Origin: a virus
Virus record (IMG/VR): IMGVR_UViG_3300045918_000170
Coordinates: 1 to 32,044 of that record
Length of the DNA stretch: 32,044 bases
Direction: 5' to 3' (one strand)
Below the pieces are notes generated by a model, which saw nothing but the letters and a program-made list of their open reading frames with translations, did no database searches and had not been told where the DNA came from. Below, piece after piece: positions 5,670 through 30,012 of this stretch; within the stretch, counting starts at the first letter, position 1, and every line of letters starts with the position of its first letter. The position numbers were made by a program, and so were the translations under genes.

Positions 5670-6246
5670 ATGACACGCGAGAAATACACCCCCCCGCAAA
5701 GGCAGCATTGCGGAAGTAGTGGTTGACTACTTTCGGCGCAACCCGCTTGAGACCATCACCGCTGATGACATGTATGTCAAATTCAGCCTACGCCGTGCAG
5801 CCAACATTCGCATGGAGCTTTTGGACGCCTACAGCACCGACACACTTGCCCGGCGTGAGGTCAACGGCGAATATGAGTATTCGGCAGGCAAACGCCTGTT
5901 GGCTGAATTGGCTGACACAGCCACCACCAAACCTGCCCGCAAAGCCGCCAGCCGCAAGACCACCAACCTGCCCGCCAGCGCCAAACCCGCAACCGTGGCG
6001 GACTTCCCTGACCCGCTGGCCGTGCCAATCGAGTCTGGCATACCCCACACCTCACTGCGCGGCGTGCGTGCGGACTGGACACTGCTGCTGGCCCGCCTGC
6101 AGGTCGACCAAAGCGCCAAGCTGCCATGGCGCTGCTACAGCACGCTGGGCAAGACCATCACCGAGTGGCACAAAACCAATGCCGCCAAGTTCATCACCAA
6201 AAAGTACCCGGATACGCAAGAGCTGCGCGTCTGGCGCGTTGCATAA
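5670..6246 (+). CDS. Hypothetical early protein, frame broken at a C7 tract near the start
   Basis: An open 175-residue frame runs from 5719 to 6246, but the natural start appears to be ATG 5670, whose frame stops after 18 codons. A run of seven Cs (5689-5695) lies between them. Removing one C joins the two frames: MTREKYTPRKGSIAEVVVDY continues straight into FRRNPLETITADDM. The N-terminal part looks like a small winged or helical DNA-binding domain (residues 10-60). The middle is Ala/Lys/Pro-rich and the C-terminus (LPWRCYSTLGKTITEWHKTN) is basic and aromatic. The break is a sequencing error, a real mutation or a slippage site. I do not recognise a family. Confidence 0.65.
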
Positions 6247-6260
6247 CCCAGGACACCACC

Positions 6261-8276
6261 ATGAGCATTGAATTCGCCAACCTGAAGCTGGCCAGCATCA
6301 TCCCCAGCCTGACCAACCCACGCAAAGTATTTGACGCCGACAAGCTCACTGAGCTGGCCACCAGCATCAAAACCAGTGGCGTACACACGCCCATCCTGGT
6401 GCGCCCACTGGCAGGTAGCCGTGTGGCCGACACCGACCGCGCCGTGCAGTTTGAACTGGTGTGCGGCGAGCGCCGTCTGCGTGCCAGCCAACTGGCAGGT
6501 TTGTCAGACATCCCGGCCATGGTGCGGGTCATGACCGACGACCAAGTACTTGAAGCCCAGCTTGTTGAAAATCTTCAAAGGGCCGACCTCACCGCGATCG
6601 AGGAAGCCGAGGGCTATGACGCCCTGATGCAGCATGCCAGCATCACCGCCGACCAGGTTGGCGAAAAAATCGGCAAGAGCCGCAGCTACGTCTATGGCCG
6701 CCTCAAACTACTGGACCTGTGCACCGAGGCCCGGGCCAGCCTGCACAGCGGCGCCATTGATGCCAGCCGCGCCCTGCTGGTGGCCCGCATCCCCGACCAC
6801 AAGCTGCAGATCAAGGCCATGAAGGAAATTGTGGATGGCCGCGGCTACGACAAAGAGCCCATGAGCTACCGGGCAGCGGCCAATCATCTGCAGGTGAACT
6901 TCATGCTGCATCTGAATGGCGCCAAGTTCCAACCCGATAACGCCGAACTGTTGCCCGCTGCGGGAAGTTGTACAACCTGCCCAAAGCGCACCGGCGCCAA
7001 TCCGGATTTGTTTGCCGACGTGACTGCTTCCAAGGGTGCAGACGTGTGCACCGACCCGCCCTGCTTCCACAAAAAGGAAGACGCCCACAGCAAGGCCCTG
7101 GTGAGCGCGGCCAAGGCCAAAGGCCAGACCATCATTGCTGGCAAAGAAGCCCTGGAGCTGATGCCAGAGAACAGCTACAACGCTAAGTTCAAGGGCTACA
7201 AGCGCCTGGACGTGGCCGCTGACAGCCCCACCGGCGTGCCCCTGCGCAAAATCATCGGCAAGCAAATGGCGGCCGAGGGCATTGCCGCCATCGTCATCGC
7301 GCACCCGTACCAAAAGGGCGAGCTGGTCGACGTGCTACCCAATGAAGTGGTGTTGCGCCTGCTCAAAACCGTGGAAGGCGCCGCCACTGAGGCTAAAACC
7401 GTTGACAAAGAAGTCAAAGCCCTGGTCGACCAGAAAAAAGCCAAGGCCGAGGCCAAAGCCAAAGCCCAGGTCGAGCAAGACTGGCGCAACCAGCTGGTGG
7501 CCCGCACCTGGAATGAACTGCGCCTGAGTGACGACCGAGGTGCGGCGTTTGACGCCACCGTACACCGCTTCCTGGCACTGCGCGCCGCCCACAACCTCAG
7601 CACCGATGACGCCACCGCCATCTGCCGCGTGCTGGAGATTGGCAAGGTGGCCACCCACAGCGCGCTGGTTGATTTTGTGAAGACCTGCAAAGAGCCCGAC
7701 ATGATCCACCTGCTGATGATCATGCAGCGTGACAGCAGCGCGGGTGACACGCACACCTACGGCGGCAATGTACCCAACGAAGGCATGCACCTGGTGGCTG
7801 GCATTGTGTGGCGTGACAAGCTGGCCGAGACCATCAAGCAGCTCAAAACCGAAGCGTTGGAAAAGTTCATGCCCGACGTCAAACCCAAAAAGGCCCCCGC
7901 CACCACGGCTCCGCTGCCGCAAGCAGAACAAGCGACCAGCTCCGCTAAAGCAGTACGTAAACCCAAAGCCAAGCTGAGCGAGACGGAAGCCAAATCAGGC
8001 ATCGCTGCCGCGATGCAGGACATGGAAGGGGCGGCTTGCGCTGACGCGTCTGCGCCACCCAGTCCGGCGGCAATGCGTGAGGCCTTGGGGATGTGCCTGG
8101 CCGTTGGTACCCGGGTCAAGGCGCTGGCAGGTAGTGCCAAAGGCAAAGAAGGCAAGGTGCTGCGCGACTGTGGTGAAGACATCGTGCTAGTCAAGTTCCG
8201 TGGCAACAGCCCCGCCATGTCATTCAGGGCCAGTCAGTTGTTGGTGGTTGGCGTGCCGGAAGAGGTGGTGGCATGA
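6261..8276 (+). CDS. ParB/Spo0J-like nuclease-domain protein, long phage form
   Basis: A 671-residue protein from ATG 6261; an in-frame start at 6126 overlaps the upstream gene and is rejected. Residues 8-110 are a ParB N-terminal domain with NPRK (19-22), GERRLRAS (69-76) and LVENLQRADL. Residues 115-160 form the ParB HTH (ITADQVGEKIGKSRSYVYGRLKLL). Residues 225-290 hold a small Cys group (CTTCPKRTG, CTDPPCFHKKED) that may bind zinc. A Lys/Ala/Glu-rich coiled segment lies near 380-410. The C-terminus (about 615-671, GTRVKALAGSAKGKEGKVL) looks like a KOW/SH3-like fold. No ParA partner is in view, so a role in transcription or DNA processing is as likely as partition. Confidence 0.85.
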   Translation: MSIEFANLKLASIIPSLTNPRKVFDADKLTELATSIKTSGVHTPILVRPLAGSRVADTDRAVQFELVCGERRLRASQLAGLSDIPAMVRVMTDDQVLEAQLVENLQRADLTAIEEAEGYDALMQHASITADQVGEKIGKSRSYVYGRLKLLDLCTEARASLHSGAIDASRALLVARIPDHKLQIKAMKEIVDGRGYDKEPMSYRAAANHLQVNFMLHLNGAKFQPDNAELLPAAGSCTTCPKRTGANPDLFADVTASKGADVCTDPPCFHKKEDAHSKALVSAAKAKGQTIIAGKEALELMPENSYNAKFKGYKRLDVAADSPTGVPLRKIIGKQMAAEGIAAIVIAHPYQKGELVDVLPNEVVLRLLKTVEGAATEAKTVDKEVKALVDQKKAKAEAKAKAQVEQDWRNQLVARTWNELRLSDDRGAAFDATVHRFLALRAAHNLSTDDATAICRVLEIGKVATHSALVDFVKTCKEPDMIHLLMIMQRDSSAGDTHTYGGNVPNEGMHLVAGIVWRDKLAETIKQLKTEALEKFMPDVKPKKAPATTAPLPQAEQATSSAKAVRKPKAKLSETEAKSGIAAAMQDMEGAACADASAPPSPAAMREALGMCLAVGTRVKALAGSAKGKEGKVLRDCGEDIVLVKFRGNSPAMSFRASQLLVVGVPEEVVA

Positions 8277-8961: not shown

Positions 8962-9167
8962 GCGAACTCGACAATTTGCGGGTGGTCCTTGCAAGGCAAT
9001 TTGATGAAATTGTGTGGTTGAAAGGCGAGGCTGGTGTGTTGCGTGGCCTACTCCGTCAAGCGCTGGCAGTTATTGAAACAATTGACGATGAAGAATCCGA
9101 TGAGTGGATGATGTTGGCCGTGCTCAAGACCAAGATGGAAGCTGCAATTTGTGGGGTGCCAACATGA
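8958..9167 (+). CDS. Small acidic hypothetical protein
   Basis: A 69-residue protein with ATG 8958 overlapping the previous stop. It has a predicted helical or coiled-coil N-terminal half (LDNLRVVLARQFDEIVWLKG) and an acidic stretch (ETIDDEESDEWMM). No family is recognised. It overlaps the following DUF4406 gene by four bases. Confidence 0.58.
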   Translation: MSELDNLRVVLARQFDEIVWLKGEAGVLRGLLRQALAVIETIDDEESDEWMMLAVLKTKMEAAICGVPT

Positions 9168-9490
9168 AGAAACGTTTGTACTTGGCTGGCCCAATGACCG
9201 GTCTGCCACAACTGAACTTTCCCGCCTTTCACGCTGCAGCGGATCACCTGCGCACCTACGGCTACACCGTGATCAACCCGGCCGAGATCAACCCTGATCA
9301 CAGCATGAGTTGGGAAGATTGCATGCGCAAAGACATTGCCGAGCTAGTGACCTGCGCGGCGATCTACCTGCTGCCTGGCTGGCAGAACAGTAAGGGCGCC
9401 ACGCTTGAGCACCACATTGCCGAGCGGCTTGGGTTGCACGTCATCATTGCGCCGCAAGATGTGGCACAGTTTTCGGAGGTGGTAGCGTGA
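9164..9490 (+). CDS. DUF4406 protein, nucleoside 2-deoxyribosyltransferase-like
   Basis: A 108-residue protein from ATG 9164 (ATGA overlap). Hallmarks of the DUF4406 family are all present: KRLYLAGPMTGLP at the N-terminus, FPAFHAAADHLRTYGYTVINPAE, the DCMRKDIAELVTCAAIYLLP segment and GWQNSKGATLEHHIAERLG. The fold is related to nucleoside deoxyribosyltransferases and TIR-like NAD-processing proteins. In phages it may act on nucleotides or nucleotide-derived signals, but no activity can be assigned from sequence alone. A longer upstream frame is rejected because it overlaps the previous gene. Confidence 0.85.
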   Translation: MKKRLYLAGPMTGLPQLNFPAFHAAADHLRTYGYTVINPAEINPDHSMSWEDCMRKDIAELVTCAAIYLLPGWQNSKGATLEHHIAERLGLHVIIAPQDVAQFSEVVA

Positions 9491-13739: not shown

Positions 13740-16700
13740 TTAATATCCCCTAACTGACCATGAAAAATTGCCAGTGGTGAGAGCACCCGCCAGCGTGTAA
13801 AGGTAGACCGTGAACCCCGTTGGGTTGGCGCCACCCACATACACCACCACCGGGATCAACGGTGTGGCTCCGTTGGGCTGAACAATCGGCGTGTCAGCAG
13901 CTATAAATGGATAACCAAACGTGACCGCTGCGCCTGTGCCTGCCACAGCTACGGCGCCAGATCCTGAGTCGCCGCGCTGTTTGACTGAGAGCTTGATATT
14001 CAGCGCATTGATTTGCATCAGATTGGCACCGCCCGTCGCGGTAAAGGTGTAAATCACTTGCACCCAACGGAAGTTTGCCGCCAATGCGGATGTAGCCCCT
14101 GCCGGTGCACTGGTCCACGGCCCGGTGCTGCTGGTGTTGCTGTAGTTGATCTGACAACTTGCGGCCACCGTGCCCGCAATAGCCGTTGTATTCAAAACAA
14201 CGGTAATGGTGGTGCTTGGGAGTGTGCTGCCGTAGTCGATGAGTTCTGTGTAACTGGCCGTGGTTAGACCCGGCTCAATATAAATCGGGTTCCCGGCGGT
14301 GATTTGCGCCTGCGGTGTGGCATAGCCATTGTTGGAATAATGCTGCGCCCAAGTCTCGGTGGTATTGATCGGCAAAATCATGCCGCCGCTGTACGCCAGG
14401 GCATTGACTTTTGTTCCTGAAAAGTCGCTGTTGATGTTAGCGCGAAACACATAATCTGGCGGCTGGTTAATGACCGCCGCCACACTGATTGCTGTGCCCA
14501 CGCTGCCCGCAGAATCAACCGCTGCCACCCAATAGTTATAGGTACCTGCTTGCTGCTCAAACACCGTGGTAAAGGTGCTGTTGCCGTTGGAGCCTATCAC
14601 CGTGCCTGCCGCCCAGCTTGCGCCCTTGCGCACCTCATAGCGGTCCACAGGCAAGCTGCCGGTGACGGGTGCGCCCCAATAGATCAGGGCGTTGTTGTCT
14701 ACCACCTGGGCCAGCAGCCCAGTCACAACACCGGGGATAGTAATCACTGCTGTGACGCTTCCCGCCGTGCCCACGTTGCCTGCTGCATCGATGGCGGCTA
14801 CCCAATAGGTTTTGGATGCGCTGTAGTCCACCTTGCGCTTGTAGCCGGTGGCCTTGGTGGTATCCACAAACACGCCTGCTGCCCAGCTTGCACCACTGCG
14901 GATTTCATACCGGTCCACCGCAAAGCCGCTGGTGGGTATGGTCCATGTCAGGATTTCATCAGGGCCACTGATGGCATAGGTGACGGTGGGCGCACTTGGC
15001 GCGGTGATGGTGACGGTGGTGCTGCTGGCAGTTGCACTGTAGTTACCCGTGGTGTCTATGGCCTTGATGCGCACCGTGATGCTGCCGCTGGTTTGTATCT
15101 TCCAGGTGTAGGCATCACTTGAGGCCACAGCCAACACTGTGTCGCCCGTGCCCCAGGCGCTGCCACCAGTGCGAATCTCGTAACCCGCCAGATCCGCATC
15201 GGCAATACCCACCCAGCTCAGATAAATGCCAAAGCTCTGAATGGTGTAGCTGATGGCCCCGGTGTCGCTGGGTGGTGCGGTCTTGCCTATCACTTGGTGC
15301 AGTACCTGCGCCGTCCAGTCGCTGACTGCCAGTTTGGTCTTGCACCGGGCGCGAACGATATAGCTTTGGTAGTCTTGCACCTCGGTGGTGGCCACCGTGG
15401 TTTCATCCCCCGGCACCACCAGGCTGGTCCATGCGCCGCTGCTGCCCGCGCTGCGGTATTGCACCTCGACTTGGCCCGCCTGCTGCACGCTGATGTCGGC
15501 CACTTGCGCCCAGGTGACGCGCATGCGGCTTTGCACCGTGCCGTCTACCTGTTTGATCAGCTCGTTGGTGCCGCTGGTGATGGTGAGTGTGCCCACCACA
15601 CCAATCTGCCACGGCTTTGGCAGGTTGGTGTTGCTGGCAAAGCCCTGGGCGCTGAAACCTGCGTCCATTTGCGTAATGGCGGCGCTGGTTTCCTTGAGAG
15701 TCAGCGCCAGGGTGCCGTCTGCGTTCCACACACGCCCCAAAATCATGAATGTCTTGGCCGCCCATCCGTAGCGACTGAGGGTCAGGCTCACGGTATCGAA
15801 CAGCTCAAGCGGGTAGGCCCGCAGTTTGAAGGGCAGCTCTACGGTGAGCGGGTCACGCGCATCGCGCATCATGATGCCGGCCACATGCAGGGCTTGGGGT
15901 GCGTAGCCAATGGCTGGGTAAGTGACCTCTTGCACCAGTTCAACGCCGTCGCGTGTCACCAAGGCGCTGCCCACCAGTGGGGTGAGTTCAGACTGTTTGA
16001 AGTCTTGCGCCTGGTCCCAAATCTTGACCTTGACGGTGTTGTACTTTTGGGCGCGTTCTTTGTGCACGCTGATGGCGATTGGCTTTTGCGATTCTGCTGC
16101 GCCATTGCGCTGCACCACAGCCAGATCGTCGTCGCCCAAACTCAAAACTGGCGCGGTGTAAACGCCTGCTTTCAGATAAATCTCACCACCCGCAAAGGCC
16201 CAACTTCCCCCCATGGCCTGCGCCAGATCGTCAAACGCATCTTTGGCGGCCGCACCATAGGGCAGCACCAGACTGCCTTTATACAGCGCCTGTGCTGCCT
16301 GTGCCGCGCCGCCCACGGTGTAGGTGGTGCTGGTGTCACACGCGTTGGCGGCTGCAATAAATCGGGCGTCCTCTGCGGACGTGATGCTGGCCTTGCCAAA
16401 CTTGGCATGCGCATACACATGGCGCAGCATCAGCGCCGGGTTTTCTGACCAGGTGGTGGTACCGGTGCGCGGGTCATACAGCTTGGCACCACGCAACACC
16501 ACGGTCAGGTTGGGCGCACCACTGGGGAACGATGCCTCAGAGTAAGTGAGCTTGGCCACCACGTAGGCCAGACCTTGAGCAACATTGGTGCTGGCCCAAT
16601 CAGACGGGAATGCGGCCAGCAGGTCGGCATCTACCGTTTGGCCTGCAGCGCCCAGGTGCTGGGTGATTTTGACGTTGCTGCCAGATACGCTGTACTGGTA

Positions 16701-17318
16701 ATGCACGGTTGCTTGCGCTTCGTCGGCGGTGACCACCAGCCCGACCTGACTCCAACCAATAGCGCGGTCACGGTAAATGGTGGGGCCGCTGGTGCCATAG
16801 GCGCCATACGCGGTGACTTGCACGCTGCCCACCACATAGTTGGCGGGCAAGGTGGCAGTAAATCCAGCGCCTGTGCTGAGGGTGCCAGTGAGTGTTGCAC
16901 CCGTGGCGTAGGGTGCGGTGGTCACAAAGCCGCTGCCGTCTACCATAACCAGTTCGTCATTGAGGTAATAGGCCTCAATGGCATCAATCTCATGGCCCGC
17001 CAGGACAATCACAAGGTACAAGTCTTTTTGGTATGCGCCCGTGCTGGCTTTGTAGGCAATCATGCCGCCCTTGCGTACCCGGCCCATGCATAAGTCGCGC
17101 GGGGCGATGGCGCTGGTGATGTTGACCATGCGGTCAACCTGGGCGGCGTTGTAGGCGTCACGCGCCTGATTTTTTGCCTGGCGCGACTTCATGGACGCAT
17201 AAGCCAAGCCGCCTGCAATCATGATGGCGGTAGAAATTTCCACCGCATACATGATCAGTACCGCAGAGCCAATCTCTGCGCCAATCCAGGCTACGGCCCA
17301 AGCAATGGCGGGGGGCAT
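13740..17318 (-). CDS. Tail tip attachment protein J-like (host specificity)
   Basis: A 1192-residue protein, from ATG 17318 in a TAATG junction with the preceding stop; an earlier start at 17336 is not favoured. The N-terminus (5-42) is very hydrophobic (AWIGAEIGSAVLIMYAVEIS), and is followed by DRMVNITSAIAPRDLCMGRV, typical of the tail-tip TipJ N-terminus. Residues 90-560 are the hub region (phage-tail domain). At least four fibronectin-III-like modules follow: about 570-680, 681-773, 774-861 and 862-951, each with YEIR/YEVR and WVAAVD-like motifs. The last 240 residues are Thr/Ser-rich, likely the receptor-facing end. Position after the NlpC-like gene matches lambda J. Confidence 0.88.
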   Translation of the reverse strand: MPPAIAWAVAWIGAEIGSAVLIMYAVEISTAIMIAGGLAYASMKSRQAKNQARDAYNAAQVDRMVNITSAIAPRDLCMGRVRKGGMIAYKASTGAYQKDLYLVIVLAGHEIDAIEAYYLNDELVMVDGSGFVTTAPYATGATLTGTLSTGAGFTATLPANYVVGSVQVTAYGAYGTSGPTIYRDRAIGWSQVGLVVTADEAQATVHYQYSVSGSNVKITQHLGAAGQTVDADLLAAFPSDWASTNVAQGLAYVVAKLTYSEASFPSGAPNLTVVLRGAKLYDPRTGTTTWSENPALMLRHVYAHAKFGKASITSAEDARFIAAANACDTSTTYTVGGAAQAAQALYKGSLVLPYGAAAKDAFDDLAQAMGGSWAFAGGEIYLKAGVYTAPVLSLGDDDLAVVQRNGAAESQKPIAISVHKERAQKYNTVKVKIWDQAQDFKQSELTPLVGSALVTRDGVELVQEVTYPAIGYAPQALHVAGIMMRDARDPLTVELPFKLRAYPLELFDTVSLTLSRYGWAAKTFMILGRVWNADGTLALTLKETSAAITQMDAGFSAQGFASNTNLPKPWQIGVVGTLTITSGTNELIKQVDGTVQSRMRVTWAQVADISVQQAGQVEVQYRSAGSSGAWTSLVVPGDETTVATTEVQDYQSYIVRARCKTKLAVSDWTAQVLHQVIGKTAPPSDTGAISYTIQSFGIYLSWVGIADADLAGYEIRTGGSAWGTGDTVLAVASSDAYTWKIQTSGSITVRIKAIDTTGNYSATASSTTVTITAPSAPTVTYAISGPDEILTWTIPTSGFAVDRYEIRSGASWAAGVFVDTTKATGYKRKVDYSASKTYWVAAIDAAGNVGTAGSVTAVITIPGVVTGLLAQVVDNNALIYWGAPVTGSLPVDRYEVRKGASWAAGTVIGSNGNSTFTTVFEQQAGTYNYWVAAVDSAGSVGTAISVAAVINQPPDYVFRANINSDFSGTKVNALAYSGGMILPINTTETWAQHYSNNGYATPQAQITAGNPIYIEPGLTTASYTELIDYGSTLPSTTITVVLNTTAIAGTVAASCQINYSNTSSTGPWTSAPAGATSALAANFRWVQVIYTFTATGGANLMQINALNIKLSVKQRGDSGSGAVAVAGTGAAVTFGYPFIAADTPIVQPNGATPLIPVVVYVGGANPTGFTVYLYTLAGALTTGNFSWSVRGY

Positions 17319-17722
17319 TACGCAAGCCTCCAGCACAGGCTAATGTCAGCCATGGGCAGCACTGCCAGGCCATGCGGCCCAGGCGCAATGCAGGTGGCGC
17401 CATTACAGACGGCCAGCATGTCACGCCCGCCTGCTTTGGTTAGCACCACATCCCCCACCTGCGCGGTACTGGCGGGCACAGGTTGGCCCAATGCGGCAGT
17501 GGCAATACCAAGCACACCGCCGTGCCGTTTAAGCAGCCTAGCGGCCTGCCTTTCGGTGGCATGCCTGCGGAAAGCTGGTAACGCCACATCGACGCCAGTG
17601 ATGGCGTGCACACAGTCAGCGGCAAAGATGGCGCAATCATTGGTGCCCCAGGTGAAAGGTTTGGCAGTGCGGGCGGCAATGAAGGCTTCAAACCGCACCT
17701 GCCAGTCGTGTCGTTTGTTCAT
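17318..17722 (-). CDS. NlpC/P60-like tail tip protein (DUF6950-like)
   Basis: A 134-residue protein. FTWGTNDCAIFAADCVHAIT places the candidate catalytic Cys at residue 30, as in DUF6950/NlpC-like phage proteins. The middle has an RRHATERQAARLLKRHGGVL helix. The segment GDVVLTKAGGRDMLAVCNGA is the usual second part with beta strands, and GPHGLAVLP may supply the histidine. In this family the domain cuts peptidoglycan or assembles the tail tip (lambda K equivalent). ATG 17722 overlaps the preceding stop by four bases, and its stop overlaps the J start. Confidence 0.82.
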   Translation of the reverse strand: MNKRHDWQVRFEAFIAARTAKPFTWGTNDCAIFAADCVHAITGVDVALPAFRRHATERQAARLLKRHGGVLGIATAALGQPVPASTAQVGDVVLTKAGGRDMLAVCNGATCIAPGPHGLAVLPMADISLCWRLA

Positions 17723-23816: not shown

Positions 23817-24743
23817 TTACCTTTTTGTCGTTTCCAGGTTGGCACGCCTTGGTGCAGACGTTTGCACACCACGCGTGCCACCTTGTTGATCTAACCTGCT
23901 GCCGCCAATACATTCAGGGCGGCTTGATGTGAATGCTGTTCTACCGACTTGTGCACCAGGCACGATGACCGCCACGTTGCCTTGGGTCAGTGTGGGCGCG
24001 TGGCCAGCGTAGGCCAACACGCCTTTAATAGGAGCCAAAGCAACGTTTGTTGTGCGTGCCAGTGTTGGCACCTTACCCGTGATCGTCAACACACCCTTGG
24101 CTGGGGCCAGCGTCACGCCACTGGTGCGTGTAACTGTCGGAACCTTGCCTGTCAGCGCCAAAGAACCTTTGACCGGCGCCAACGCCTTGTTGGTGGTTTG
24201 CACCAGTGTGGGCGTCTTGCCTGTGGCTGTCAGACTCCCTTTGATTGGGGTCAGCATCAAGCCTGACGACTGTGTGACTGTCGGAACCTTGCCCGTGACC
24301 GTCAAACTTCCCTTGACCGGGGCCAGAGCCACGTTCGCGGTTCGGGCCAGCGTGGGCACCTTACCTGTGAGGGTCAGACTGCCTTTGGCCGGGGCCAGAG
24401 TTAGCCCAACCGACTGTGTAACTGTTGGCGTCTTACCTGTCAGGGCTAACGCGCCTTTGCTTGGTGCCAGCGCCACATTCGCGGTTCTGGCGACTGTCGG
24501 AACCTTGCCTGTGGCGCTCAGTGAGCCTTTGACCGGGCTGAGTGCGACATTGGCTGTGCGGGCCACGGTGGGCACTTTGCCTGTTGCCGTCAGGCTACCT
24601 TTGACCGGGGCCAGGGTGACGCTGCTGCCACCCGTTTGCACCAGCGTGGGGGCGTGGCCCGTGGCGGTCAGTGCACCTTTGGTTGGTGACAGTGAAACAC
24701 CGCCGCCTGCTGCTGCCGGGGCAAGTAATAGCAGCAAAGACAT
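23817..24743 (-). CDS. Virion-like protein with ten tandem 24-residue repeats
   Basis: A 308-residue protein. After a hydrophobic start (MSLLLLLAPAAAGGG) residues 16-256 are ten head-to-tail repeats. Copies two to nine are exactly 24 residues; the first is 26 and the last 23. The repeat reads approximately VALAPVKGSLTATGKVPTVA plus RTAN, with invariant Pro at position 5, Lys-Gly at 7-8, Gly at 14 and Pro-Thr at 17-18. A 52-residue non-repeated, basic tail follows. The regularity suggests a beta-solenoid, fibre or surface-decoration protein. The gene lies among head proteins between the DGR and the connector genes. DNA repeats of 72 bp could change copy number by recombination. Function is not recognised. 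Confidence 0.72.
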   Translation of the reverse strand: MSLLLLLAPAAAGGGVSLSPTKGALTATGHAPTLVQTGGSSVTLAPVKGSLTATGKVPTVARTANVALSPVKGSLSATGKVPTVARTANVALAPSKGALALTGKTPTVTQSVGLTLAPAKGSLTLTGKVPTLARTANVALAPVKGSLTVTGKVPTVTQSSGLMLTPIKGSLTATGKTPTLVQTTNKALAPVKGSLALTGKVPTVTRTSGVTLAPAKGVLTITGKVPTLARTTNVALAPIKGVLAYAGHAPTLTQGNVAVIVPGAQVGRTAFTSSRPECIGGSRLDQQGGTRGVQTSAPRRANLETTKR

Positions 24744-26121: not shown

Positions 26122-26577
26122 TCAAGCCAGGCCAAGTTTTGCCCGCTCGGCACGGCCCCAGGCGCGGGCGGCTTCAACGAATTCACCAAAGGCAAGCAGT
26201 TCGTCTTGTTCGCCTGGCTTGAAAGCGTAGGCGCCCAGCGCCACACCCACGCCAATGCGGGCGTATTTGGCCTCGTCACTCTGGCTGTATATGCTGCGAA
26301 TCAACTGCTCGGTGCGCTCGTAAATCAGCGCCACATGCACACTGGCGGCCTTGATTTGCTCTTTGAGATCATCGGTGAGCGTCACGTCTGTGATGGTGAT
26401 CTCTGGGTGCTGTTCTGGCAGCGTCAATTCGTCAGGCACAGCCACATAGGTCACGCCATCAAGCGTGCACAGTTCGGTGCAATAGACGGCGTCATCCACA
26501 CCTTGCGAGTCGGGCAGGCGCATTTGCAGCACGGTGAGCGCTTGTAAAACTTTGCGGTAGCTTTTGATAGAGGTCAT
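26122..26577 (-). CDS. Hypothetical structural-region protein downstream of the RT
   Basis: A 151-residue protein from ATG 26577 with AGGA eight bases upstream; the first 86 bases overlap the end of the RT gene in another frame. It is helical at both ends (SYRKVLQALTVLQMRLPDSQ, LLAFGEFVEAARAWGRAERA) with a strand-like centre (VTYVAVPDELTLPEQHPEIT, then ITDVTLTDDLKEQIKAASVH). No family is recognised. The long overlap with RT indicates tight coupling or a trimmed RT terminus. It may be a structural or assembly protein, since the surrounding genes are of that type. Confidence 0.6.
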   Translation of the reverse strand: MTSIKSYRKVLQALTVLQMRLPDSQGVDDAVYCTELCTLDGVTYVAVPDELTLPEQHPEITITDVTLTDDLKEQIKAASVHVALIYERTEQLIRSIYSQSDEAKYARIGVGVALGAYAFKPGEQDELLAFGEFVEAARAWGRAERAKLGLA

Positions 26578-27529
26578 GGTGGTGTTCCTGTAGGTGCGTC
26601 ATGAGGGGTTGAAATGAACAGGTGTGCCGGGCATGGCCCAGGCGCGAAACAACGCCGGGCAGATGCCTGCGCCGGGCATCGGTGCGCAGTGCACCAATCA
26701 CATGGGGGCGCACAAAGCGGGCGGTCGACCAGGTGCGAAAGCCTACAAAGTTGGCGCCGCGTTTGATTGGGTGCAGGCTGTAGTGGCTGATCTCCAACCC
26801 CAACACCAGCATATGGGCACGAATGGTTGCCAGCCACAATAAGCCCTGGGCGCGGCTGTTGGCAAGCATGATGGCATCGTCCATATAGCGGCCATAGTGG
26901 GGCACCTTGAGGGTCCGTTTGCAATACTGGTCCAGGCTGTTGAGGTAAACATTGGCAAAGGTCTGGCTCAGCAGGTTACCTATCGGCACGCCCTGTGGTG
27001 CATCACGGTGCGCAAATTGTGCCAATAGGTGCAGCATGCGCTGGCACTTGATGACCTTGGCCAACAAGGCCTGCAGCACCGTGCGATCGATGCTGTAAAA
27101 GAACTTGCGAGCATCCACATGCAGCACCCAGTCGGTGCGCGGTGCGGCTCGCATGCATTTTTGCAACCAGTCTGCCGCCTGGTGGGTTCCCCGGCCCACA
27201 CGGCAGGCAAAGCTGGTGGTGATGTATCGGGCTTCAAACAGCGGGGCCAGCACGGCGTAGGCGGCATGCTGCACCACCAGGTCACGAAACGCGGGGGCTT
27301 CAATGAGTCGCGGTTTGCGGCCATCAGTGACCCAAAAACTATTGCATGGGCGCGGTATGTAAGAGTAATCCGACAGCTCGGTGTGCAACAGGTGCAGGTT
27401 CTCGCCCAGGTTGCGGCCAAATTCATAACAGGCCCGGTGGCTGCGTTTATCCTGGCGGGCACGCAGATAGGCTGCATGTAGCGCCTCGGTGCTGCAAATC
27501 TGCGGGTACAGGTTACCGCTACGGCGCAT
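26492..27529 (-). CDS. Diversity-generating retroelement reverse transcriptase
   Basis: A 345-residue protein from ATG 27529, chosen for AGGA six bases upstream; an in-frame TTG at 27562 is weaker. RT motifs in order: RKPRLIEAPAFRDLVVQHAA (fingers), DWVLHVDARKFFYSID with Asp139 (motif 3/A), QGVPIGNLLSQTFANVYLN at 179-197, the DGR-typical IGxxxSQ form of motif 4, and YMDD at 215-218 in GRYMDDAIML (catalytic Asp217 and Asp218). The thumb-like part follows, with a basic C-terminus (RTDARRRHLPGVV). There is no maturase or endonuclease domain, unlike group II intron RTs. It copies the TR RNA with adenine-specific errors. It is preceded by the TR and the Avd-like gene and overlaps the next gene by 86 bases. 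Confidence 0.95.
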   Translation of the reverse strand: MRRSGNLYPQICSTEALHAAYLRARQDKRSHRACYEFGRNLGENLHLLHTELSDYSYIPRPCNSFWVTDGRKPRLIEAPAFRDLVVQHAAYAVLAPLFEARYITTSFACRVGRGTHQAADWLQKCMRAAPRTDWVLHVDARKFFYSIDRTVLQALLAKVIKCQRMLHLLAQFAHRDAPQGVPIGNLLSQTFANVYLNSLDQYCKRTLKVPHYGRYMDDAIMLANSRAQGLLWLATIRAHMLVLGLEISHYSLHPIKRGANFVGFRTWSTARFVRPHVIGALRTDARRRHLPGVVSRLGHARHTCSFQPLMTHLQEHHHDLYQKLPQSFTSAHRAANAPARLARCG

Positions 27530-27816
27530 GGCGGATCCTGGTGAAAGATGCAGCAGCACCAATTTTCATGGCGGAGCACCCAACATGGGATGCGGCCACT
27601 ACCAAAGGGCGCTGCCGCCTAACATTTCGCCGTACAGCACGACAGGGGCTCCCTCTTTGCCAGTCAGCACACGCTGCATAAGGCATGTTTGGCATAGAGT
27701 CGGCACAAAACCCCACGTTGTTGTTCGCGTTGTTCCGGGCATTGTTGAGGTTGCGATTGCGCACACCAGCGTTGCCGCCGTTGTTCCAATTGCCACGCGA
27801 AATCACACAAAGCATG
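27530..27816 (-). ncRNA. DGR template RNA region (TR plus spacer to the RT)
   Basis: No convincing gene lies between the Avd-like stop (27817) and the RT start. The span holds the TR at its 5' side and a spacer of about 171 bases before the RT, matching the layout in which RT-Avd uses an RNA made of TR and flanking spacer. A frame is open through it, but it lacks plausible protein character and overlaps avd and RT. The RNA boundaries are not visible and are inferred from the layout. Confidence 0.7.
27701..27813 (-). repeat. DGR template repeat (TR)
   Basis: A 113-base repeat matching 28290-28402. On the coding (minus) strand it has 27 adenines, of which 26 are the first two bases of 13 AAC/AAT codons in the target's frame. 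All 14 differences from VR are at these adenines (10 A-to-G, 3 A-to-C, 1 A-to-T); none of the other 86 positions differs. It begins three bases after the Avd-like stop. This pattern is the defining signature of a DGR template. Confidence 0.97.
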
Positions 27817-28242
27817 TCAAGCCCCCACCGCATTCGGGGGTTCACACCCCTGAATTTCTGTGTTGAGCCAGCCGCCAATCATGCGTCCCAGCTCATCCAC
27901 CATTTTTAACAGCGTCAGAAACCGGTGGTCAGCCGGGGCCTGCGCATCTTTGCGCCCTGCATCAAACCCAAATAACCCAAGCTCATGGGCCAGGTGGATC
28001 ATCATGCGCAACTGCTCGTGGCGCACGTCGAGCGCTGTAAGAGCAGTCTTTTTGTAATAACGCTTTTGTGCCTCGGTCACCAGGTTGTACACATCCAGAA
28101 ACGCCTGGCGGATGCCCTGCGAAAGTGTGTATTTATGGCAATTTGGGAAATGCGCCAGATACCCCTCAAGCTGCACAGCAAACAACACCAGCTTGCGGTG
28201 CAAGCCCGCTTCGGCGTGAATGGATTTTTTCTGCGTGGTCAT
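27817..28242 (-). CDS. avd: Avd-like DGR accessory protein
   Basis: A 141-residue protein with AGGACG before ATG 28242, between target and TR exactly where avd sits in Bordetella phage-type DGRs. The sequence HRKLVLFAVQLEGYLAHFPN, then YTLSQGIRQAFLDVYNLVTE, then LDVRHEQLRMMIHLAHELGL and FLTLLKMVDELGRMIGGWL forms four amphipathic helices, the bAvd four-helix-bundle pattern. Avd forms a basic pentamer that binds RT and template RNA and is needed for mutagenic cDNA synthesis. The stop is three bases before the TR. The family assignment rests on pattern and context. Confidence 0.88.
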   Translation of the reverse strand: MTTQKKSIHAEAGLHRKLVLFAVQLEGYLAHFPNCHKYTLSQGIRQAFLDVYNLVTEAQKRYYKKTALTALDVRHEQLRMMIHLAHELGLFGFDAGRKDAQAPADHRFLTLLKMVDELGRMIGGWLNTEIQGCEPPNAVGA

Positions 28243-28248
28243 GTCGAC

Positions 28249-28272
28249 GTCCTATCGCTATCGCTCAAGGAC
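28249..28272. promoter_or_regulatory. Inverted repeat just downstream of VR (possible DGR homing hairpin)
   Basis: GTCCT (28249-28253) and AGGAC (28268-28272) form a perfect five-base inverted repeat with a 14-base loop. It lies 17 bases past the VR end and between target stop and avd start. Hairpins directly after VR support target recognition in several DGRs. This one has a short stem and a long loop, so the call is tentative. Confidence 0.35.
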
Positions 28273-28275
28273 ACA

Positions 28276-30012
28276 TCACAAATACGAGGCGGCACAAAAC
28301 CCCACGCTGACGCCCGCGCTGGCCCGGGCACTGTTGAGGGCGCGAGTGCGCACACCAGCGTTGCCGCCGTTGCTCCAACTGCCACGCGAAATCACACAAA
28401 GCTGATCCAATATGTACTGGTAAAACTCATCAGACCCAAACAGGCTGATGCCTGCAGCACTGGTGCCACCCGCTGCAGGTAAGCCCAGCATGGTCAGGGC
28501 GCGGCCGTTGGCGGTGCTCATGTCAAACACTGCATTGGTACCGTTGCCAAATTTTGTGCTGTTGGTATTGGCTGCAGCAGCTGTGGTGAAGTTGACCGTA
28601 ACTGCATCAAACTGGGCGGCCACACCCGCAGCACCCCAATGGTCGGTGGCGGTGCTCGCGCCACTGGTGACAGCGGCAATGTCTACCGAGGTTTTGAGCG
28701 TATAGAAGATGCCGGTGTTGCCTGTGCCACCAGATGTGTAGGCGGTGTAGCCAGTGCCATCCACACCGTCGAGTGTGTAGGTGTTGGCATCAACCACCGT
28801 GACGGTGTAGAAGCGGTCGTTGATTTGCGTCATACCCACCACAGAGCGGATGTTTACCACCGTGCCGGTGACATAACCATGCGCTGCGCTGGTAATGCTC
28901 ACCGGGTTGGCTTGGGTAGCTGCTGTGATGGCCTTGCTCACAGCAATGCTGGTCATGCCAGGATTGATTTTGTAGATGTTGCCATTGGTGTCTGCAATAC
29001 CGCAGGCCTGGCCGTTGTGGGTGGTTTTGGCAAAGGGTGAGCCTGAGCCGGTTTGGGCCATGTTGGGCTGGCTGCTGGCACCTGCGGTGATATAGGTCAC
29101 CGTTGTGTCGTTGATGTCTTTCAGGGCGTTGTTGTTGTTGCCTTTGACAAAATTGGTTATGCCGGCGGCGTCGTACCACGCACAGAATGTGGCAGCCTTG
29201 CTGGCTTGGGCGTGGGCTTCGCTGATTCGCGCCAATGCATCAGCCATGAACACGGATTCAGGGAAGAACTTGGCGCCACGCGATTTGGCAGCCTGCAATG
29301 CCCCGTAATAGGCGTTGACAGGGGTTTGCCCATTGGCGGTGCAGCCGGTAAAACCGACCTGCCCCGCACCAGGTGCGCTGACCATGGGCATGGCCCGCGC
29401 AATGGAGCTGGCAACCGTGCCGTTTTGCGAGCAGTCGTATTTGTCCCGGAAAAAACCAATCTGATTGGCCCCGGCGTTCACAAAGGCACGGTGCAGGTAA
29501 TAGCCTTGCGCGTTAGCTGCGGCTTCATTTGTAAAAAAGCCTGGTGATTTGACATCGATGCTGTTGGCACCATAGGTGGCAAAGGTCGGGTTCTGGGTAT
29601 GCCCAAGCCTGAAATAAAAGGCGGGCACCCACACCATGATGGATCCATCGGAGTATTGGTAGTTACCATAGTTGTCGCCCGCAGGGTCTTGCGTACCGTA
29701 CAGGGCGCTGTAGCCGGTGGGCAGGACGGGACAAATACCAACACCGAAGCCTTGCTGGCCGGGGGTGCCGATATCGTTTGACGGGTGTGCTGTAACCATT
29801 ATGGGACCGGCCAAAAAGTTGGTGGTACCGTTTGCTGCAGCTACAGCAACTACGGGTTGTGCATCAAATTCAAACTGGCCAGTTCCCATCAATTGATAGG
29901 CTTCAGCATCAGGGCGCCACTCTGCTTGCGCAATTTTCCAGACTGATTGCTTGCCGGTATATGCAAGTTCTGAGAAGTTTTCAGAACTCCCGATGTATTT
30001 GATTTTAGGCAT
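28276..30012 (-). CDS. DGR target protein with C-terminal variable C-type-lectin-like domain
   Basis: A 578-residue protein whose residues 538-574 are the VR. N-terminal part (1-120): MPKIKYIGSSENFSELAYTG and a strand-rich segment like phage virion anchors. Middle (125-340): IMVWVPAFYFRLGH and GYYLHRAFVNAGANQIGFFR, typical of formylglycine-enzyme/C-type-lectin-like DGR targets. Residues 361-430 are an inserted FCCH-like domain (ITSAAHGYVTGTVVNIRSVV, NDRFYTVTVVDANTYTLDGV). The end (FGSDEFYQYILDQLCVISRG, WSNGGNAGVR, VGFCAASYL) is the lectin-fold binding face. Residues 545, 547, 556, 558, 561, 564, 565, 567, 568 and 569 differ from those the template would encode. It is probably a receptor- or surface-binding virion protein displayed on or near the head. 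Confidence 0.92.
   Translation of the reverse strand: MPKIKYIGSSENFSELAYTGKQSVWKIAQAEWRPDAEAYQLMGTGQFEFDAQPVVAVAAANGTTNFLAGPIMVTAHPSNDIGTPGQQGFGVGICPVLPTGYSALYGTQDPAGDNYGNYQYSDGSIMVWVPAFYFRLGHTQNPTFATYGANSIDVKSPGFFTNEAAANAQGYYLHRAFVNAGANQIGFFRDKYDCSQNGTVASSIARAMPMVSAPGAGQVGFTGCTANGQTPVNAYYGALQAAKSRGAKFFPESVFMADALARISEAHAQASKAATFCAWYDAAGITNFVKGNNNNALKDINDTTVTYITAGASSQPNMAQTGSGSPFAKTTHNGQACGIADTNGNIYKINPGMTSIAVSKAITAATQANPVSITSAAHGYVTGTVVNIRSVVGMTQINDRFYTVTVVDANTYTLDGVDGTGYTAYTSGGTGNTGIFYTLKTSVDIAAVTSGASTATDHWGAAGVAAQFDAVTVNFTTAAAANTNSTKFGNGTNAVFDMSTANGRALTMLGLPAAGGTSAAGISLFGSDEFYQYILDQLCVISRGSWSNGGNAGVRTRALNSARASAGVSVGFCAASYL
28290..28402 (-). repeat. DGR variable repeat (VR)
   Basis: A 113-base copy of the TR at the 3' end of the target gene, ending 14 bases before the stop codon region. 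It keeps all TR bases except 14 that are adenine in the TR. The invariant 3' block (GTGGGGTTTTGTGCCG) is the likely initiation-of-mutagenic-homing region. It encodes the ligand-facing residues of the C-type-lectin-like domain. Confidence 0.96.

What the first reader, a model, noticed from the sequence alone, without database searches (positions are those of the whole stretch)
26492..30012. Complete diversity-generating retroelement in a temperate siphovirus
Target gene with VR, Avd-like gene, TR and RT stand in one uninterrupted block. TR and VR align over 113 bases without gaps; all 14 mismatches are at template adenines and none at the other 86 positions. That bias is direct evidence of adenine-specific mutagenesis. 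The RT has an intact YMDD and DGR-type motif 4, so the element is probably active. DGR layout in this phage type is known in principle, but this copy and its target look undescribed here.
Basis: partly seen in the sequence, partly recalled or inferred. Interest (0 to 1): 0.96.

Follow-up and report, generated by a model that had tools for sequence, protein, structure and literature searches.

The report
Phage diversity-generating retroelement, Bordetella type
A temperate bacterial virus carries a complete and apparently working copy of a known mutation machine that rewrites the tip of one of its surface proteins; it is a well-documented kind of element in a phage group that lacks close cultured relatives.

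Summary
On the minus strand at 30012-26492 lie a target gene with a 3' VR, an Avd gene, the TR and an RT. TR and VR align over 117 bp without gaps; all 15 mismatches are at template adenines and none at the other 89 positions. One of the 15 (GAC to GCC near the 3' end) recurs in the relatives and is best read as the IMH*/IMH difference, leaving 14 mutagenic changes. The RT groups with known DGR RTs and apart from three group II intron RTs. The Avd matches Pfam bAvd. The target model matches the Thermus DGR variable protein (Z 29). Order and spacing match Bordetella phage BPP-1. A GRNA-loop hairpin lies 13 nt past VR, and the TR-RT spacer has a conserved RNA fold. Relatives show recent activity: contigs with identical flanks differ at 13-15 VR positions, all at TR adenines. 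For this phage itself there is no such evidence: the one other contig differs at a single VR base, a non-adenine. Details not found in the few papers checked: a hairpin variant with tandem G.A mismatches, a conserved partner gene after the RT, a target beside the major capsid gene. New member of a known kind; modest interest.

The parts
28276..30012 (-). DGR target gene, 578 aa; FGE-type C-type-lectin variable protein with an inserted FCCH-like domain
   Evidence: AF2 model pLDDT 81; VIA-align Z 29.0, rmsd 3.2, 303 aligned to Thermus DGR variable protein 5vf4; Mtd variants Z 11-12
28286..28402 (-). VR (variable repeat), 3' end of the target gene, residues 538-575
   Evidence: 117 nt ungapped to TR, 15 mismatches all at TR adenines
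28286..28306 (-). IMH-like 3' part of VR; GCC here against GAC in TR
   Evidence: the same A>C difference is seen in the printed relatives' VRs; exact borders inferred
28249..28272 (-). hairpin GTCCT-T-GA-GC-GATA-GC-GA-T-AGGAC, GRNA loop with tandem G.A mismatches, 13 nt after VR and 3 nt after the target stop codon
   Evidence: GRNA-loop hairpin after VR in 68 of 89 loci, 0 of 89 after TR, 2 of 1780 shuffles; arms covary, 0 of 10000 permutations. Single-strand DNA energy alone is not significant, z -0.69
27817..28242 (-). Avd accessory protein, 141 aa
   Evidence: Pfam bAvd E 2.9e-13, over cut-off; PHROG 3206; NCBIfam Avd 59 bits, below its cut-off of 80
27697..27813 (-). TR (template repeat), 28 adenines; no variable codon can become a stop
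27530..27696 (-). TR-RT spacer with conserved RNA structure (template RNA 3' part)
   Evidence: 11 relatives, 44 pairs, 16 with a compensatory change
26492..27529 (-). DGR reverse transcriptase, 345 aa, YMDD, motif VPIGNLLSQ
   Evidence: PHROG 1423 E 7.2e-90; 8ub7 BPP-1 RT E 1.9e-45; tree
28708..28947 (-). FCCH-like insert domain of the target (residues 356-435)
   Evidence: Pfam E1_FCCH E 1.4e-8; UBA6 FCCH Z 14.5; T1 tail tube 9l0f Z 10.5
26122..26577 (-). conserved partner gene after the RT, 151 aa, function unknown; overlaps the RT gene by 86 nt
   Evidence: downstream of the target or RT in most related loci, also where avd and RT are absent

Best explanation
This is a diversity-generating retroelement of the BPP-1 type in a temperate siphovirus, probably of a Rhodoferax-like Burkholderiales host. 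The TR is transcribed with the 3' end of avd and the spacer, the RT-Avd complex copies it while misreading adenines, and the mutated cDNA replaces VR from the IMH side, helped by the DNA hairpin behind VR. This rewrites up to 13 AAY codons in the lectin-fold tip of a virion protein that most likely binds the host. Shown here: parts, adenine-only TR/VR differences, RT clade, predicted target fold, hairpin and spacer conservation, recent adenine-only VR divergence in relatives. Inferred from BPP-1 work: cDNA priming, retrohoming, receptor binding, activity of this very copy.
For: TR/VR pattern; same gene order and similar spacing as BPP-1 fetched here, VR-avd gap 43 against 35 nt, spacer 167 against 144 nt; RT and Avd families; target fold; hairpin; spacer RNA; 88 distinct TR/VR pairs of relatives with 1334/2420 adenines but 45/7692 other bases changed; near-identical contig pairs with 13-19 VR differences, nearly all at TR adenines, and 0 differences in about 2,400-2,500 flanking bases; host from loci in Rhodoferax MAGs, RT 69%. 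Mechanism: Guo 2011 PMC3240598, PMC12875486.
Against: No reads or expression data. The one other contig of this phage carries the same VR except for a T>G at a non-adenine, so no adenine-only divergence is seen within this phage. The count over 88 pairs is inflated because the mining penalised non-A mismatches. The target's N-terminal 75 residues and its place in the virion are unknown.
Confidence: 0.95

Rival explanations
1. The element is a DGR that was active until recently but is now idle in this phage; VR is a frozen variant.
For: Two contigs share one VR apart from a non-adenine base. Relatives show that decay happens: avd and RT partly deleted in L068, L077, L117 and absent near the target in L078, L121 and others.
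Against: All four parts, the YMDD motif, hairpin, IMH and the spacer RNA are intact; RT and Avd are open frames. Two contigs may simply be one clone.
Confidence: 0.12
2. The repeat is an ordinary duplication within the target region with chance adenine bias, next to an unrelated RT.
For: Direct repeats alone are common in phages.
Against: P about 1e-11 for the adenine restriction; same pattern in 88 distinct pairs; conserved order in more than 70 loci.
Confidence: 0.005
3. The RT belongs to a retron, group II intron or defence system.
For: RVT_1 and PADLOC RT profiles match.
Against: Group II model 107 bits against a cut-off of 300; retron and DRT models far below theirs; IGNLLSQ motif and DGR clade. 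No retron RT was in the tree.
Confidence: 0.005

Closest known systems
BPP-1 tropism-switching DGR (mtd, avd, TR, brt), Bordetella phage
   Same: Gene order, strand, VR at the 3' end of the target, avd between VR and TR, TR next to the avd stop, spacer length, RT motifs, hairpin with GRNA loop
   Different: RT 37.5% identical over 79%; different target N-terminus; target beside the capsid gene; within the 117-bp repeat only one IMH/IMH* difference, where BPP-1 has four non-A TR/VR differences; hairpin has tandem G.A mismatches and a short outer stem instead of a perfect stem
Thermus aquaticus DGR variable protein TaqVP (5vf4)
   Same: FGE-type C-type lectin fold with VR at the C-terminus, Z 29.0 over 303 residues
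   Different: 20% identity; the window protein has an added FCCH-like domain and a longer N-terminus
Metagenomic DGR catalogue of Roux et al. 2021 (PMC8144416)
   Same: Viral DGRs with C-lectin targets, many of them tail proteins
   Different: Whether this copy or its relatives are listed could not be checked

Membership tests
Diversity-generating retroelement | TR and VR repeats differing only at template adenines | tested here: met
   15 of 15 mismatches at 28 adenines, 0 of 89 elsewhere
Diversity-generating retroelement | RT of the DGR clade with the SQ-type motif 4 and an intact catalytic motif | tested here: met
   VPIGNLLSQ, YMDD; one group with BPP-1, VHML and Nostoc DGR RTs, 100/99 against group II intron RTs; retrons not sampled; BPP-1 RT best in PDB
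Diversity-generating retroelement | Accessory protein Avd | tested here: met
   Pfam bAvd 50.7 bits over cut-off 40; NCBIfam equivalog 59.3 below cut-off 80
Diversity-generating retroelement | Target with C-type lectin fold carrying VR | tested here: met
   predicted model against 5vf4 Z 29.0; Mtd Z 11-12
Diversity-generating retroelement | IMH/IMH* difference at the 3' end of the repeats | tested here: met
   A>C at the same place in the relatives printed; borders not tested by experiment
Diversity-generating retroelement | Hairpin 3' of VR with GRNA loop (Guo 2011: 7-10 bp GC-rich stem, 4-34 bp from VR) | tested here: inconclusive
   GATA loop and 13-nt distance fit; the stem is 5 bp plus a G.A-interrupted inner part, so the stem rule is not met to the letter; conserved form in relatives
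Diversity-generating retroelement | Adenine-specific mutagenic retrohoming in vivo | not testable with these tools
   population traces in relatives only
Temperate siphovirus | Integrase and long-tail genes without a sheath | tested here: met
   Phage_integrase, tape measure, tail terminator, major tail protein; no sheath family matched among the proteins scanned

The most novel reading that the evidence does not exclude
A sub-family of DGRs whose target-site hairpin is built on tandem G.A mismatches (core GAGC-GRNA-GCGA with a covarying outer stem), and whose diversified protein depends on a small dedicated partner, encoded right after the RT and kept when the RT is lost. In this phage the diversified protein may sit on the head or neck instead of the tail tip.
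Probability: 0.25. Interest if true: 0.5.

Novelty: new member of a known kind. Interest (0 to 1): 0.3.

Why it matters
As a single element it is ordinary. Its relatives form a large environmental family with several sets of near-identical contigs that differ only in VR, a natural record of DGR activity. The G.A-mismatch hairpin and the conserved gene behind the RT give two specific tests of how DGR target recognition works and how lectin-fold fibres are built.

Tried and rejected
Two pattern scans of viral contigs for further VR or TR variants of this phage found only contig L003. No Rfam family fits the TR or spacer; one chance match in the RT gene on the other strand. Folding the hairpin as plain single-strand DNA gave no significant energy; the nearest-neighbour model may treat tandem G.A poorly, so conservation was used instead. 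The partner gene 26122-26577 gave no consistent Pfam family over 53 members and no PDB fold under E 0.001; in BFVD one match, A0A516LIE3, with E 6.4e-5 and no name. No isolate phage in the collection holds the whole target; Campylobacter phages match residues 75-354 only. No isolate match for the partner gene. The target's first 80 residues gave no family.

Full report
Observation. The minus strand of the window holds, in order, a target gene (30012-28276), avd (28242-27817), TR (27813-27697) and RT (27529-26492). An unbiased repeat search returned the TR/VR pair as the longest repeat of the region. The two align over 117 bases without gaps; 15 mismatches fall on 15 of 28 template adenines and none on 89 other bases, P about 1e-11. 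The last mismatch (GAC in TR, GCC in VR) recurs at the same place in the relatives printed, so it is best read as the IMH*/IMH difference rather than a product of mutagenesis; 14 mutagenic changes remain. These hit 10 of 13 AAY codons, all with amino-acid change; no variable codon can become a stop, and the possible repertoire is about 10^16 proteins.

Proteins. The RT matches PHROG 1423 and, among solved structures, first the BPP-1 RT (8ub7, 159 bits against 64 for the next). It carries YMDD and VPIGNLLSQ, and groups with the DGR RTs of BPP-1, VHML and Nostoc with 100/99 support against group II intron RTs (three group II rows, no retron rows, long branches warned of). Avd passes the Pfam bAvd cut-off but not the stricter NCBIfam one. 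The target model (49 sequences, pLDDT 81, first 75 residues unreliable) matches the Thermus DGR variable protein at Z 29.0 over 303 residues and the BPP-1 Mtd variants at Z 11-12. Residues 356-435 form an inserted domain that matches the FCCH domain of ubiquitin E1 enzymes and phage tail-tube proteins; most relatives align without it.

Cis elements. A hairpin with a GATA loop starts 13 nt after VR (28272-28249). A test written after inspection of the sequences finds a GRNA-loop hairpin behind VR in 68 of 89 loci, behind TR in none, and in 2 of 1780 shuffles. Thirty-nine loci, the window among them, have the form GAGC-GRNA-GCGA or close to it, with tandem G.A mismatches inside an outer stem whose arms covary (own pairing 5.06 against 3.64 when swapped, 0 of 10000 permutations). 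The loci are related, so these counts are not independent. Guo et al. 2011 (PMC3240598) describe 7-10 bp GC-rich stems with GRNA loops 4-34 bp from VR; the loop and distance fit, the stem differs. BPP-1 itself has the perfect stem. The 167-nt TR-RT spacer has a shared RNA fold in 11 relatives, 16 of 44 pairs with compensatory changes, as expected of the structured BPP-1 spacer (PMC12875486).

Activity. In relatives, contigs with no difference in about 2,400-2,500 flanking bases differ in VR at 13-15 positions, all at template adenines (L022, L024, L027), or at 15-19 positions with one exception (L014/L061, L030/L031). Over 88 distinct pairs, 1334 of 2420 adenines but 45 of 7692 other bases differ; the mining favoured this, so the ratio is an upper bound. 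For the window's own phage the only second contig (L003) is identical over 11,550 bases except one: window 28297, in VR, T>G at a template thymine, Phe to Leu. One random difference would fall in VR with about 1% chance. It may be an error, a plain mutation or a rare non-adenine change; it is no evidence for adenine mutagenesis.

Context. The phage has an integrase, a repressor-like gene (PHROG) and siphovirus tail genes. Its nearest RT relatives in bacterial genomes lie in Rhodoferax and Burkholderiales MAGs, so a Comamonadaceae host is likely, by inference. The target lies directly after the HK97-type capsid gene; of seven related contigs with a recognisable capsid gene this holds for two (L003, which is the same phage, and L075), while in five the target lies about 9-16 kb away. 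The target's N-terminus differs between relatives; in L075 and L094 it resembles T4 gp9/10 and, weakly, Mtd. A separate tail-fibre gene lies at 13740-17336. The target is therefore a modular virion protein, most likely receptor binding; head, neck or tail placement is open.

Partner gene. The 151-aa gene behind the RT (26577-26122) follows the RT in most related loci and follows the target directly, by 4 to 160 nt, in L078, L085, L098, L102, L121 and L124, where no avd or RT lies between. It is thus tied to the target more than to the RT. Its fold is predicted with high confidence (pLDDT 95) but has no good match in PDB. A chaperone or a co-assembled subunit is the likeliest role (inference).

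Verdict. A genuine, complete DGR of BPP-1 architecture; new member of a known kind. Confidence 0.95 for the class, lower for present activity of this copy.

Noticed in passing
26122-26577 (-): Conserved 151-aa gene of unknown fold behind the RT; stays with the target where avd and RT are gone.
   Followed up: partly
28249-28272 (-): Target-site hairpin with tandem G.A mismatches around a GRNA loop, the commoner form in this DGR family.
   Followed up: partly
28297: Only difference from contig L003 in 11,550 bp: T>G in VR at a non-adenine template position.
   Followed up: partly
L068, L077, L117: DGRs that seem to decay by internal deletion (avd 5' part, in L068 and L117 with the RT 3' part) while the target stays open; the VR hairpin is kept in L077 and L117.
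   Followed up: partly
28708-28947 (-): FCCH-like domain inserted into the lectin-fold target, weakly similar to the phage's own major tail protein (36% over 75 residues).
   Followed up: partly
23817-24743 (-): Gene of unknown function with two 144-bp internal repeats, about 75% alike (24128-24425).
   Followed up: no
6126-8276 (+): 716-aa ParB-like protein with ParB_N and HTH_ParB domains, long for a phage ParB.
   Followed up: no
9104-9490 (+): 128-aa protein matching nucleoside 2-deoxyribosyltransferase and MazG-like families (PHROGs).
   Followed up: no
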